The translations under genes were made by a program, and so were the position numbers. A DNA stretch of 64,000 nt. Origin: Limosilactobacillus coleohominis 101-4-CHN. Its GTDB lineage: Bacteria > Bacillota > Bacilli > Lactobacillales > Lactobacillaceae. Below, in pieces: positions 22,690-63,745 of this stretch. The stretch spans positions 506,594 to 570,593 of the forward strand of contig NZ_GG698802.1 in NCBI RefSeq assembly GCF_000161935.1, given 5' to 3'. Position 1 is the first letter of the stretch. Every line of letters begins with the position of its first letter. The notes beneath the pieces are model-generated. The model had not been told where the DNA came from and searched no databases. It saw only the letters and a program-made list of their open reading frames with translations.

Positions 22690-22915
22690 AGCCTCATCCC
22701 ATCAAGGGACGAGGCTATCGCGGTACCACCCTAGTTTATGACAATCGTCATACACTTATAACGATTCAGTAACGGTCATCAACCGGGTACATCAATACCA
22801 GCTCTGGAAGTGAAATTCATCTTTAAAGTCTAAAAACGACTTGCAGTTTATGAATCGTTTCTCCCTGCTAGACTTACCAGACTACTAATTTCCATCATTG
22901 CTTTTCTAAAAAGTT
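22690..22915 (-). ncRNA. T-box leader (Phe) of pheST
   Basis: The conserved T-box AGGGTGGTACCGCG is at 22719-22732 on the minus strand. It is followed by a terminator hairpin (AGCCTCGTCCC paired with GGGATGAGGCT) and T-run ending near 22686. A UUC codon at 22812-22814, near the base of stem I (GGAA/UUCC), is a fitting Phe specifier. Uncharged tRNA-Phe would stabilise the antiterminator and allow pheST expression. Confidence 0.93.
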
Positions 22916-36561: not shown

Positions 36562-36591
36562 ACACCTCCAATTTTGATAACGAAAGAACAA

Positions 36592-36726
36592 GCAAAAAAA
36601 GCGAGGTGCAAACCACCCCGCTTGAAAATACTAAATCACATCCGTAATCTAGATTCATTCAACTCGTCAGCCCGGCGACTCTAGTCACCAAGGCGAGAAG
36701 CGGGCGCTTCTGCTTTTCTTTCAACA
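36592..36726 (-). promoter_or_regulatory. L20-type leader with attenuator before infC
   Basis: A leader of about 130 nt precedes infC. Near its end AAGCGGGGTG and CACCTCGCTT form a stem at 36599-36624 followed by seven T, a terminator placed just ahead of the gene. Firmicute infC-rpmI-rplT operons have an L20-binding leader that works by such termination. The position and terminator fit; the L20-binding fold itself was not verified. Confidence 0.7.
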
Positions 36727-60114: not shown

Positions 60115-60155
60115 ACAAAAAGACCCAGCGCTTAATCAAAGTTAGCACTGGGTTC
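60115..60155 (-). terminator. Terminator of the orphan RNA
   Basis: ACCCAG and CTGGGT with GC/GC inside pair around a 14-nt loop and are followed by CTTTTTG on the minus strand. Confidence 0.8.
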
Positions 60156-60434
60156 TTTTATACTGGGAAGTGGTTCAAAGTTGTTAAAAACTTTTGTCAC
60201 ACCCATCTTTGGGAAGGAATCATTTTCAGCCCTTTGCGAGAAAGCTATTATCTAAACTTAACTCATCAATTTTAATTCATCTTCCGCAAAGTAACTATTT
60301 ATTACCTAGTGCACGCCGGTAACCACACACTTCAAATAATATTACAGGTTACTCTTATGCTGCTTCTGACCTACTAAATCTTCAGCCGCTAGGCACGCGT
60401 AGATTTCTTGTTGTATCTACCTATTTCCTTCCAC
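60117..60434 (-). ncRNA. Orphan structured RNA, about 318 nt, family not recognised
   Basis: No open frame is present, yet the region has its own promoter (60441-60469) and terminator (60117-60153). Read on the minus strand, GGAAGGAA (60432-60425) pairs with UUCCUUCC (60219-60212) and encloses about 205 nt. Inside are GUAGAU/AUCUAC (60420-60399), UGCCUAG (60395-60389) with CUAGGUA (60309-60303), GUAACC/GGUUAC (60352-60319) and CUUUGCGG/UCGCAAAG (60291-60232). After the closing helix a hairpin is built from UGGG/CCCA, GUG/CAC and AAAGUU/AACUUU. The many nested complementary segments suggest a structured non-coding RNA. It does not show the conserved parts of RNase P RNA, tmRNA, SRP RNA or the single long hairpin of 6S RNA. 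Confidence 0.65.
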
Positions 60435-60440
60435 GTCTTT

Positions 60441-60469
60441 AATATAACATTAAATGTAAGCGATTTCAA
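60441..60469 (-). promoter_or_regulatory. Promoter of the orphan RNA
   Basis: TTGAAA (60464-60469) and TATATT (60441-60446) are exactly 17 bases apart on the minus strand, each differing from consensus at one position. The predicted start is near 60434. It lies just after the stop of the CPBP gene. Confidence 0.8.
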
Positions 60470-60483
60470 TAGTTGTTTTTACA

Positions 60484-61170
60484 TTAGCCAATCGTTCCTA
60501 ACAACGCAAGCAAAGCAACTAAGTTATTAATTGCGTGCAACCAAATTGTATTCGTGATATTACCAGTTTTACGATAAATGAAAGCAAAGACTGCCCCTAA
60601 ATAAAAATAAATTAAATAGCTAATAATGGTCGTACTAGAATGTTCCAATGTAAACAAAAGCCCTGATAATAAAATCGGTAACCAGAACGCTTCCCGCTTA
60701 AAGAAGAAATTCATTAATACACCACGAAAAATTAGTTCTTCAGCAATCGGATTCAGCACAACTGCCGCAAATGACATAATTATAAAGACCACCTGATTAC
60801 TGCTTAATAAACGACCAATTAATTGATTATTCGCCGTTTCCGTTTGATGATAAATCAGGTAATTCAGTAAATTTAATACTTGTTCACCAAGAATGACCGC
60901 GAGACATCCGCCAATAATCCATTTAAGATGCTGTCCTAGCCCCTGAGTGCTTGGTTGCCAATGGCGATACTTTAGGAAAAGGTGGCGTGCCCATAAGATT
61001 ATTCCACCAAACACAATTACGTAGATCACAATCAAGAGTGCTAACATAGCTGGCACCGTTGAATACTTACGAATAAAAAGTAAAATAACTGGTGGTACCT
61101 GAATCAATAATGCCAATAGTCCGACAATTAAAACCCGCAATATCCAAAGCGGTCGTTTTGTTGCATTCAT
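60484..61170 (-). CDS. CPBP family intramembrane metalloprotease
   Basis: The ATG at 61168-61170 has GAGGGAAGTG upstream and gives 228 aa; a start 30 bases earlier is less likely. The protein has about 6-7 membrane helices. The Abi/CPBP motifs are present: NPIAEELIFRG (two Glu and Arg), LLFTLEHS (Phe and His) and IWLHAINN (His and Asn). Members process prenylated or bacteriocin-related proteins, and some give bacteriocin self-immunity. No bacteriocin gene is seen nearby. Confidence 0.92.
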   Translation of the reverse strand: MNATKRPLWILRVLIVGLLALLIQVPPVILLFIRKYSTVPAMLALLIVIYVIVFGGIILWARHLFLKYRHWQPSTQGLGQHLKWIIGGCLAVILGEQVLNLLNYLIYHQTETANNQLIGRLLSSNQVVFIIMSFAAVVLNPIAEELIFRGVLMNFFFKREAFWLPILLSGLLFTLEHSSTTIISYLIYFYLGAVFAFIYRKTGNITNTIWLHAINNLVALLALLGTIG

Positions 61171-61206
61171 AAATTCACTTCCCTCAAAAGTTTTATTCAT
61201 AATATC

Positions 61207-62303: not shown

Positions 62304-62322
62304 CTACGGATTGAAAGGGATT

Positions 62323-62931
62323 TCAATTATTTTCAAAATGGACTCCAAAGACATTCTGCATAATTTCCTTTGCTTGCGCACATTGGGTTCCCCGAACCCT
62401 CAGATAATCAATCTTAGCCAACAAAATTTCATATTCCCATAGAGAAGAAAGGTCATGTTCGTTTAAATAATGTAAATTCAGTTTGATGGCTGACAAACTA
62501 TGAATCAAGCCCGTAAAATCATCTTCACCCTTATAACGATCTGTCCCGATTACTACCGGTAGCTGATGCTGATAAGAATCCTCCAGCAGTGTCCTTAAGA
62601 TATTGGTATTTTGATAATCATGATGCCGCAAAAATTCTTGCAATTTCCAAATATCGAAATAATGATGGTCTTCGGCTACTTTGCATTTTAAAGAGACCGT
62701 CGTTAAATAGTCAGTATGCGCTTGAACCTTATGAATACTTTCGAGCCGGATGGCGGTTAATCCGTTAATTTTACCATCCCAATCAATTCCTAATAACAGA
62801 ACAAATAATGGATCGATTGCAATCACAAAGCCAACATTAAAAATATCATCATCGACAAAGTTATAAACTTCGACCAAATACCCTTGCTGGTTTGCCATTA
62901 CTAATTGTTCTTTAATTTCGTTTGGTGACAT
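62323..62931 (-). CDS. Unknown protein, 202 aa
   Basis: The ATG at 62931 is 7 bases after GGAGG and is better placed than the ATG at 62937, only 1-2 bases after it. The product is soluble and acidic. The N-terminal ~70 residues look like a small beta-barrel (LVEVYNFVDDDIFNVGFVIAIDPLFVLLLGIDWDGKINGLTAIRLESI). The rest is mixed, with HYFDIWKLQEFLRHH and a helical C-terminus. No catalytic motif and no family is recognised. It lies 63 bases upstream of the LacI-family gene on the same strand and may share its transcript. Confidence 0.8.
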   Translation of the reverse strand: MSPNEIKEQLVMANQQGYLVEVYNFVDDDIFNVGFVIAIDPLFVLLLGIDWDGKINGLTAIRLESIHKVQAHTDYLTTVSLKCKVAEDHHYFDIWKLQEFLRHHDYQNTNILRTLLEDSYQHQLPVVIGTDRYKGEDDFTGLIHSLSAIKLNLHYLNEHDLSSLWEYEILLAKIDYLRVRGTQCAQAKEIMQNVFGVHFENN

Positions 62932-63113: not shown

Positions 63114-63745
63114 ATGGTGATTATTACAGCAGGCATGATTGGTGTTGGTAAAACGACCCTTACAGGTAAGATTGCTGACCATTTACACACACAAGCGTTT
63201 TTTGAACCCGTTGGTGAAAATCCAGTATTACCACTATACTACAAGAACCCTAAGCAATATGGTTTTTTGTTGCAAATTTACTTTTTAAACAAGCGGTTCT
63301 CGATGATCAAAAAGGCTTTGAATGATGATAACAATGTTTTAGACCGTTCCATCTATGAAGATGCCCTATTTACGCGAGAGAACAATGCTGAAGGTAATAT
63401 CTCTGATACTGAATTAGATGTCTATCTCAAGTTACTAGACAATATGATGGCAGATCTCAAACAACTGCCAAAACGGGCCCCGATCTAATGGTCTACTCAG
63501 AAACGGACTTCGAAACCATCCTCTATCGGATTAAAAAACGGGGCCGTGATTATGAGCAAATTGATAATAAACCATAATTAAAGGACTACTATTATAAAAT
63601 GTGGAATGCTTATAAAAAGTGGTACCGTGATTACGATGCTAGTCCTAAAATGAAAATTGATTTGGAAAAATATAATTTGGAAGATCCACGTAACGTGGAT
63701 ATCGTTTTACAAATGATTGATGATAAACTAGCATCGCTTCGTTAA
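63114..63745 (+). pseudogene. Deoxynucleoside kinase, broken by frameshift and nonsense codon
   Basis: The first 124 codons encode the start of a deoxyadenosine/deoxyguanosine kinase: P-loop GMIGVGKTT, FFEPVGENPVLPLYY, and the DRSIYED motif. The frame then stops at 63486-63488. Removing one base near 63477-63485 restores the family sequence DLMVYSETDFETILYRIKKRGRDYEQ in the next frame. That frame meets a TAA at 63575-63577 where relatives have Glu or Asp (NKP-stop-LKDYYYKMW). It continues to a normal end at 63745. Two independent lesions indicate a pseudogene rather than a programmed shift. A good ribosome site (GAGGAG) is still present. Confidence 0.9.

What the first reader, a model, noticed from the sequence alone, without database searches (positions are those of the whole stretch)
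60115..60470. Orphan structured non-coding RNA with its own promoter and terminator
A 318-nt minus-strand transcript is predicted between a TTGAAA-17-TATATT promoter and an intrinsic terminator, with no reading frame. An 8-bp closing helix joins its 5' end to position 60212, and at least four internal helices and one 3' hairpin can form. RNase P, tmRNA and SRP signatures are absent, and the multibranched layout does not look like 6S RNA. It may be a new regulatory or scaffold RNA, or a diverged member of a known family.
Basis: partly seen in the sequence, partly recalled or inferred. Interest (0 to 1): 0.75.

Follow-up and report, generated by a model that had tools for sequence, protein, structure and literature searches.

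The report
Catabolite-controlled structured RNA in Limosilactobacillus
A lactic acid bacterium carries a gene for an RNA of about 320 bases that seems to make no protein, folds into a conserved branched shape, matches no catalogued RNA family, and sits behind a sugar-sensing DNA switch, so it is probably a new regulatory RNA linked to sugar supply.

Summary
Homologues occur in 40 of 50 Limosilactobacillus and 7 of 7 Paucilactobacillus genomes. In samples of 396 Lactobacillaceae and 395 Lactobacillales genomes, no other genus scored above 27 bits. Forty-two distinct full copies support P1, P3, P4 and P5 by paired base changes. All 42 have a terminator-like hairpin within 140 nt; none of their reading frames is conserved family-wide. 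No Rfam family reaches its cut-off. The same genome has its 6S RNA at rarA-uspA and its RNase P RNA elsewhere.

A CcpA site (cre) overlaps the -35 box in 42 of 42 copies, matching at 12-14 of 14 positions. In this window it is the only exact cre site in 64 kb. Neighbouring genes vary between clades, which argues for action in trans.

Best reading: a carbon-catabolite-controlled, independently transcribed structured RNA that presents an invariant unpaired core to a protein or RNA partner. Expression, partner and effect are not shown.

The parts
60455..60468 (-). cre box TGAAATCGCTTACA (CcpA operator), overlapping the -35 box
   Evidence: Exact match to TGWAANCGNTNWCA and the only exact site in the window; 12-14 of 14 positions in 42 of 42 homologues, starting 34-35 nt before the GNGGAA of the closing helix; consensus as quoted in PMC5986886 (passage)
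60464..60469 (-). -35 box TTGAAA
   Evidence: TTG in 42 of 42 homologues
60441..60446 (-). -10 box TATATT, preceded by TG
   Evidence: region conserved in homologues
60117..60436 (-). predicted transcript (start inferred from the -10 box, end from the terminator)
   Evidence: inferred, no RNA data
60425..60432 (-). closing helix P1, 5' strand GGAAGGAA
   Evidence: pairs with 60219-60212; 320 of 336 cells paired and 16 changed on both sides in 42 sequences; the innermost eighth pair forms in 27 of 42
60212..60219 (-). closing helix P1, 3' strand TTCCTTCC
60399..60420 (-). hairpin P2 (GTAGAT/ATCTAC), variable in sequence and length
   Evidence: the P2 segment folds below -3 kcal/mol in 38 of 42 homologues; no shuffle control was run for it
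60389..60393 (-). helix P3, 5' strand CCTAG
   Evidence: pairs with 60309-60305; all 6 P3 pairs counted have changes on both sides across the family; the sixth, outermost one is unpaired in 14 of 41
60305..60309 (-). helix P3, 3' strand CTAGG
60368..60387 (-). stem-loop P4: GGCT 60387-60384 / GGTC 60371-60368, loop GAAG...AGTA
   Evidence: 3 of 4 pairs changed on both sides; the outermost unpaired in 10 of 29; GUC/GAC in place of GCC/GGC in L013, L072, L088 and, separately, L052
60354..60367 (-). highly conserved unpaired core J4/5, AGAAGCAGCATAAG
   Evidence: alignments
60347..60352 (-). helix P5, 5' strand GTAACC
   Evidence: pairs with 60324-60319; 4 of 6 pairs with changes on both sides
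60319..60324 (-). helix P5, 3' strand GGTTAC
60309..60318 (-). conserved CGGCGTGCAC after P5, its last base being the first of P3
60232..60291 (-). helix P6: CTTTGC 60291-60286 / GCAAAG 60237-60232, extended by GGAAG/CTTTC
   Evidence: nearly invariant in 40 of 42, so hardly any covariation; the other two (L048, L050) have unrelated sequence here that can form another helix by eye
60177..60194 (-). 3' hairpin AAAGTT/AACTTT, seen in this form only here and in L002
60117..60153 (-). intrinsic terminator
   Evidence: a terminator-like hairpin within 140 nt after the closing helix in 42 of 42 homologues against 4 of 126 base-shuffled stretches

Best explanation
This is an independently transcribed, trans-acting structured RNA whose gene is controlled by carbon catabolite repression. 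While a preferred sugar is plentiful, CcpA bound to the cre box blocks the -35 element. When the sugar runs out, the promoter opens and the RNA is made. It folds into a closed multi-branched body (P1 closing; P2; P3 carrying P4 and P5; P6) that holds the conserved unpaired segment AGAAGCARCRUAAG, with the P4 loop and the GUGCRC segment next to it. The body most likely presents that core to a protein or ribonucleoprotein partner, as a decoy or scaffold, to adjust metabolism. Shown by computation: the family, the helices P1, P3, P4 and P5, the promoter with its cre box, the terminator, the lack of a family-wide reading frame. Inferred: expression, the sign of CcpA control, action in trans. Guess: a protein or RNP partner rather than an mRNA.
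For: Family: 40 of 50 Limosilactobacillus and 7 of 7 Paucilactobacillus genomes, genus names through. Structure: P3+P5 pair in 93.4% of cells against 76.3% in shuffles, 98 double-changed cells against 32.1, 0 of 500 shuffles as high for either; slid controls give 23-47% paired. P4+P5+P6: 41 double-changed cells against 12.8, 0 of 500. P1: 16 against 5.5, 0 of 500. Control: cre on the -35 box in 42 of 42, the only exact cre site in 64 kb, and CcpA encoded (471.7 bits, cut-off 442.35). PMC8414754 (parts 1-3 of 7 read) takes cre sites on -35 boxes as likely inhibitory. In trans: terminator-like hairpin in 42 of 42; in the window the next gene downstream is a convergent tRNA; neighbours differ between the genera. 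Coding: median longest ORF 27 codons against 30 in shuffles.
Against: No RNA-seq or northern data were available. CcpA binding is predicted only, and CcpA can also activate. No partner was identified. P6 barely varies: 1 double change, matched or passed by 20 of 500 shuffles. The number of pair types is not above shuffles for P1, P4 and P5 (414, 171 and 163 of 500 shuffles as high). Alignment A3 was fitted to model R1, which contains most of the P3 and P5 pairs, so that count leans towards them. Counts are of related sequences, not of independent events. Ten of 50 Limosilactobacillus genomes gave no match, and one match is a decayed copy (L054), so the RNA is dispensable. An antisense mechanism is not excluded.
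Confidence: 0.6

Rival explanations
1. A CcpA-controlled antisense sRNA that works like RsaI of Staphylococcus aureus: made when glucose is gone, it base-pairs with mRNAs of sugar uptake and fermentation genes. The stable body protects the RNA and exposes a pairing segment.
For: Same inferred control as RsaI, which PMC8334554 (passages) describes as repressed by CcpA in glucose. One conserved unpaired segment exists.
Against: By eye no C- or U-rich unpaired segment is conserved: CCUCCC or UCUCCC after P2 occurs only in part of Limosilactobacillus. The conserved unpaired segment is purine-rich and nearly fixed across two genera, which seems unusual for an mRNA seed. No target search over the genome was made.
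Confidence: 0.27
2. A cis-acting leader (riboswitch-like) whose terminator controls the gene downstream.
For: In 20 of the 36 Limosilactobacillus copies among the 42, a small protein gene (cluster 1) follows on the same strand.
Against: In the window the next gene downstream is a tRNA on the opposite strand. In the Paucilactobacillus copies and the other Limosilactobacillus copies the downstream gene is another one, often on the other strand. The hairpin follows the completed closing helix and varies in sequence.
Confidence: 0.04
3. A diverged 6S RNA, or a second 6S RNA.
For: LAB 6S genes carry a cre box on the -35 element in about a third of species (PMC8414754); both have a closing stem. The first whole-genome 6S search found nothing.
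Against: The genome has a 6S RNA above the Rfam cut-off at rarA-uspA (48.4 against 46.4 bits). This RNA and 16 homologous loci give no 6S match; it is multi-branched and lies elsewhere. PMC8414754 reports one 6S copy per LAB species.
Confidence: 0.03
4. A dual-function RNA that also encodes a small peptide.
For: Of the six sequences with the P2 hairpin GTAGAT/ATCTAC (L001-L005, L077), five have a 16-24 codon ATG frame starting at P2 behind a GGAAGG stretch.
Against: The sixth, the window's own copy, has ATA in place of ATG; the frame is not seen in other clades; ORF lengths do not exceed shuffles.
Confidence: 0.04

Closest known systems
RsaI (Staphylococcaceae sRNA repressed by CcpA)
   Same: Stand-alone RNA with (here predicted) CcpA control that links an RNA to sugar supply.
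   Different: RsaI is 144 nt, conserved in Staphylococcaceae, with known mRNA targets (PMC8334554, passages). Here the RNA is about twice as long, has a closed multi-branched body, and no target is known. No Rfam match.
6S RNA of lactic acid bacteria
   Same: A cre box over the -35 element occurs at about a third of LAB 6S genes (PMC8414754, parts 1-3 read); closing stem.
   Different: The 6S gene of this genome is separate, at rarA-uspA. This RNA is branched, with no central bubble in a rod, and matches no 6S model.
Large ornate RNAs (GOLLD, ROOL, OLE)
   Same: Orphan structured RNAs; [quoted passage not shown]
   Different: No match to any Rfam family here, and this RNA is much shorter (their sizes are recalled).
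RNase P RNA, type B
   Same: Similar length.
   Different: The genome's RNase P RNA is elsewhere: C12:377986-378359, 309.3 bits.

Membership tests
6S RNA (RF00013) | Match to the covariance model above the family cut-off | tested here: not met
   No 6S match at this locus, nor in 16 homologous loci; the genome's 6S is at L028 2064-2250
6S RNA (RF00013) | Location between rarA and uspA in LAB (PMC8414754) | tested here: not met
   Flanked by a CPBP-like gene and a tRNA here; neighbours of other copies; the rarA locus holds the real 6S
6S RNA (RF00013) | Rod with a central open bubble | tested here: not met
   P3 encloses P4 and P5, and P1 encloses P2, P3 and P6, with covariation for P1, P3, P4, P5
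6S RNA (RF00013) | Binds RNA polymerase and templates product RNAs | not testable with these tools
   needs biochemistry
RsaI-like CcpA-controlled antisense sRNAs | cre site in the promoter, with CcpA encoded | tested here: met
   cre in 42 of 42; ccpA in the genome
RsaI-like CcpA-controlled antisense sRNAs | Sequence or structure match to an RsaI family | tested here: not met
   All 4227 Rfam families scanned without a match at a cut-off at the RNA; that RsaI is among them is recalled
RsaI-like CcpA-controlled antisense sRNAs | Base-pairs with mRNAs | not testable with these tools
   needs an RNA-RNA interaction experiment
RNase P RNA type B (RF00011) | Match to the model | tested here: not met
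   single match in the genome, at another locus
tmRNA and SRP RNA | Match to the Rfam models at this locus | tested here: not met
   their own loci in this genome were not sought
Cis-regulatory leader or riboswitch | Conserved downstream gene in the same direction | tested here: not met
   convergent tRNA in the window, cluster-1 gene in 20 of 36 Limosilactobacillus copies, other genes elsewhere

The most novel reading that the evidence does not exclude
A new class of ribonucleoprotein-forming RNA, so far seen only in Limosilactobacillus and Paucilactobacillus, that is released from CcpA repression when sugar runs out and works by presenting a fixed tertiary core to a protein or to the translation or transcription machinery. 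That would be a carbon-controlled counterpart of 6S RNA with an unrelated fold.
Probability: 0.3. Interest if true: 0.82.

Novelty: new variant of a known kind. Interest (0 to 1): 0.62.

Why it matters
Little is known of regulatory RNAs in lactobacilli, many of which are used in food and as probiotics (recalled). Here is a well-bounded RNA family of two genera with covariation-supported structure and a conserved promoter that points to its likely signal (sugar supply through CcpA). The question 'what does it do' becomes directly testable: the condition, the regulator and the fold are predicted, ten of 50 genomes of the genus gave no match, and one carries a decayed copy. It also adds to the report that 6S RNA of many lactic acid bacteria is under CcpA (PMC8414754), and suggests that CcpA may control more than one structured RNA.

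Tried and rejected
6S RNA: the genome-wide search missed the real 6S, so the rarA locus was fetched and scanned; the 6S is there, and the 6S reading of this RNA was dropped.

Similarity or complementarity to 23S rRNA (a lead from the motif AGAAGCARC, recalled): local alignments of 6 of the 42 sequences to the 3-kb 23S stretch of this genome were not better than first-order random copies; 14 to 95 of 100 random copies scored as high. Rejected.

Small peptide: rejected as a family trait.

Hits that are not homologues: L022, L023, L024 and L025 match only the promoter. L022, L023 and L025 look by eye like sugar-kinase promoters with a cre box; L024 is another gene. Three of these four genomes (G011, G016, G026) have the RNA elsewhere. 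L055 (26.3 bits) reads by eye as the end of an rpoD-like gene. Twelve Lactobacillales matches of 20.4-22.8 bits were taken as noise from their score and not inspected; so was a second match of 25.8 bits in G023. Two viral-contig matches lack both strands of P1.

Plasmids: no match. An automatic MAFFT alignment of the whole RNA misaligned P1, so P1 was counted from anchored strands in a script; a full-length covariance model was not attempted. RNAalifold on whole alignments gave only part of the helices.

Weak Rfam matches below cut-off: ncr1015 at 29.6-34.7 bits (cut-off 60) near the 3' end and terminator in L010, L019 and L086; not taken as membership.

Literature: looked for such an RNA in Lactobacillus, Limosilactobacillus or L. 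reuteri, or for candidate structured RNAs. Their listings (4, 0, 1, 7 and 4 papers; titles and starts of abstracts) name no such RNA; of these papers only PMC8414754 was opened. A list of 224 candidate RNAs that I wanted to check is not held. So 'not in print' is only as wide as these searches and Rfam 15.

Full report
WHAT IS THERE. On the minus strand a promoter (TTGAAA 60469-60464, 17 nt, TATATT 60446-60441) begins about 15 nt beyond the stop codon of a membrane protein gene that looks like a CPBP protease (60484-61200, name by eye). About 318 nt later an intrinsic terminator (stem 60153-60144 / 60132-60123, T tract to 60117) ends the unit. The unit folds better than 99 of 100 dinucleotide shuffles (z -2.58). 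No Rfam family reaches its cut-off; six weak matches are listed in the observation check.

A FAMILY. A DNA search of 56 relatives gave matches in 25; in four of those 25 only the promoter matched (L022-L025). Covariance models of the P3-P4-P5 domain (R1; R2) were then run. Family level: 27 of 396 genomes, one of them judged false, leaving 26 genomes in two genera. Order level: 17 of 395 genomes at E <= 0.05, of which 5 score 82-102 bits and 12 score 20-23 bits and are taken as noise. These two searches used stricter filters and could have lost weak members. Genus level: 40 of 50 in the window's genus and 7 of 7 in the second genus. A pattern scan of named genomes (37 stretches) names the two genera Limosilactobacillus and Paucilactobacillus. 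Apart from one weak second match (G023, 25.8 bits) each genome has one copy. From the loci fetched, which do not cover all 47 of these genomes, 42 distinct full-length copies were cut out, 36 from Limosilactobacillus and 6 from Paucilactobacillus; L009, L053 and L054 were incomplete, unparsed or decayed and were left out.

STRUCTURE. P1 closes the molecule. In 42 sequences 320 of 336 cells pair, with 16 double changes against 5.5 in shuffles (0 of 500); the eighth pair forms in only 27 of 42. GGAAGGA/TCCTTCC becomes GGAAAGA/TCTTTCC in some Limosilactobacillus and GGAAGAAC/GTTCTTCC in two Paucilactobacillus. P3 is the strongest: all six counted pairs change on both sides, though the outermost is unpaired in 14 of 41. 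P3 and P5 together give 93.4% paired cells against 76.3% in shuffles and 23-47% when slid; that alignment was fitted to a model holding most of these pairs, but the slid versions share the same alignment. P4 (GUC/GAC in place of GCC/GGC in two separate clades; a fourth, looser pair of types AU, CG, GC, GU and UA) and P5 are supported in a second alignment, made by MAFFT without a structure, of 35 of the 42. P6 is nearly invariant in 40 of 42; L048 and L050 have a different sequence there that could form a replacement helix. The number of pair types is not above shuffles for P1, P4 or P5. P2 is a variable hairpin whose segment folds below -3 kcal/mol in 38 of 42, without a shuffle control. The mean folding z of the 42 bodies is -2.15; L034 is above zero and the window's copy at -1.8. 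The most conserved unpaired part is AGAAGCARCRUAAG between P4 and P5. Counts are of sequences, many of them related, not of events.

CONTROL. In the 45 nt before each of the 42 copies, the best match to the cre consensus TGWAANCGNTNWCA scores 14, 13 or 12 of 14 positions (15, 24 and 3 sequences). In all 42 it overlaps the TTG of the -35 box, and it starts 34-35 nt before P1. The central CG is kept in 42 and 41 of 42. In the window it is the only exact site in 64 kb, although with one mismatch allowed the number of matches (8) is what chance gives (6.3). The consensus is quoted in PMC5986886 (passage). The genome encodes CcpA. PMC8414754 (outline, parts 1-3 of 7 and passages) reports cre boxes over the -35 element of about a third of LAB 6S genes, takes them as likely inhibitory, and cites a threefold rise of 6S RNA in a Lactococcus ccpA mutant. 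The 6S gene of this genome has no such box at its promoter; its best cre-like stretch (12 of 14) lies inside the gene.

NOT CIS-ACTING, NOT CODING. A terminator-like hairpin lies within 140 nt after P1 in 42 of 42 copies (4 of 126 base-shuffled stretches); in 8 of the 42 the best one starts more than 50 nt after P1. In the window the next gene is a tRNA on the opposite strand. In 33 of 36 Limosilactobacillus copies the upstream gene is of the CPBP-like cluster, and in 20 of 36 a small protein gene lies downstream. In 4 of the 6 Paucilactobacillus copies the upstream gene looks like acetolactate decarboxylase, in one like a LacI-type regulator, in one it is another gene (names by eye). Longest reading frames are no longer than in shuffles (median 27 against 30).

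WHAT IT IS NOT. A 6S RNA above cut-off lies at rarA-uspA (48.4 against 46.4 bits), after a first search had missed it. RNase P RNA is elsewhere. Homologues from both genera, 16 loci in all, also give no Rfam match at a cut-off at the RNA; ncr1015 appears far below its cut-off at the 3' end in three of them.

HOW IT PROBABLY WORKS. The nearest functional model with data is RsaI of S. aureus: repressed by CcpA in glucose, active when glucose is gone, acting on sugar-metabolism mRNAs (PMC8334554, passages). The control is likely alike. The body is not: it is longer, closed and branched, without (by eye) a conserved C-rich seed, and with a nearly invariant purine-rich core. This favours, without proof, a protein or RNP partner over an mRNA target. 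I give about 0.97 to 'real structured RNA gene', 0.85 to CcpA control, and 0.6 to the whole statement.

LIMITS. No expression data; E-values from the home-made models are rough; the sampled genomes are one per species; the ten Limosilactobacillus genomes without a match include incomplete ones (34 of the 41 good-quality genomes match). One of the 40 matches, L054 (G027), is a decayed copy whose promoter no longer reads as such by eye.

Noticed in passing
L028:2064-2250 (own genome, C10): The 6S RNA of this genome scores only 48.4 bits against a cut-off of 46.4 and was missed by the genome-wide search; a cre-like stretch (12 of 14) lies inside the gene, as PMC8414754 reports for some other lactobacilli.
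   Followed up: partly
window 62312-62325: Near-palindromic TGAAATCCCTTTCA, one mismatch from a cre box, between the LacI-type regulator gene and its upstream neighbour; possibly an operator of the LacI-type regulator.
   Followed up: no
window 63114-63488 and 63599-63745: Two frames that look by eye like parts of one deoxynucleoside kinase gene, apparently interrupted.
   Followed up: no
L054:1501-1584: Decayed copy of the RNA in one Limosilactobacillus genome (G027): P5 region shortened, no recognisable promoter or cre box by eye.
   Followed up: partly
L002, L003, L004, L005, L077: A 16-24 codon ATG frame starting at P2 behind GGAAGG (for example MRQEIYTYLAAEDLVGQKQHKSNL in L002); the window's copy has ATA at the start.
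   Followed up: yes
window 22702-22907 and 36587-36721: A T-box leader and a ribosomal protein L20 leader, both above their Rfam cut-offs.
   Followed up: no
L051:1094-1322: T-box leader (105.3 bits) just downstream of the RNA, on the same strand, in the genome that names [Lactobacillus] timonensis.
   Followed up: no
L022, L023, L025: The same cre-on-promoter sequence (30-40 nt, 85-90% identical) in front of genes that read by eye like sugar kinases, in Limosilactobacillus genomes.
   Followed up: partly
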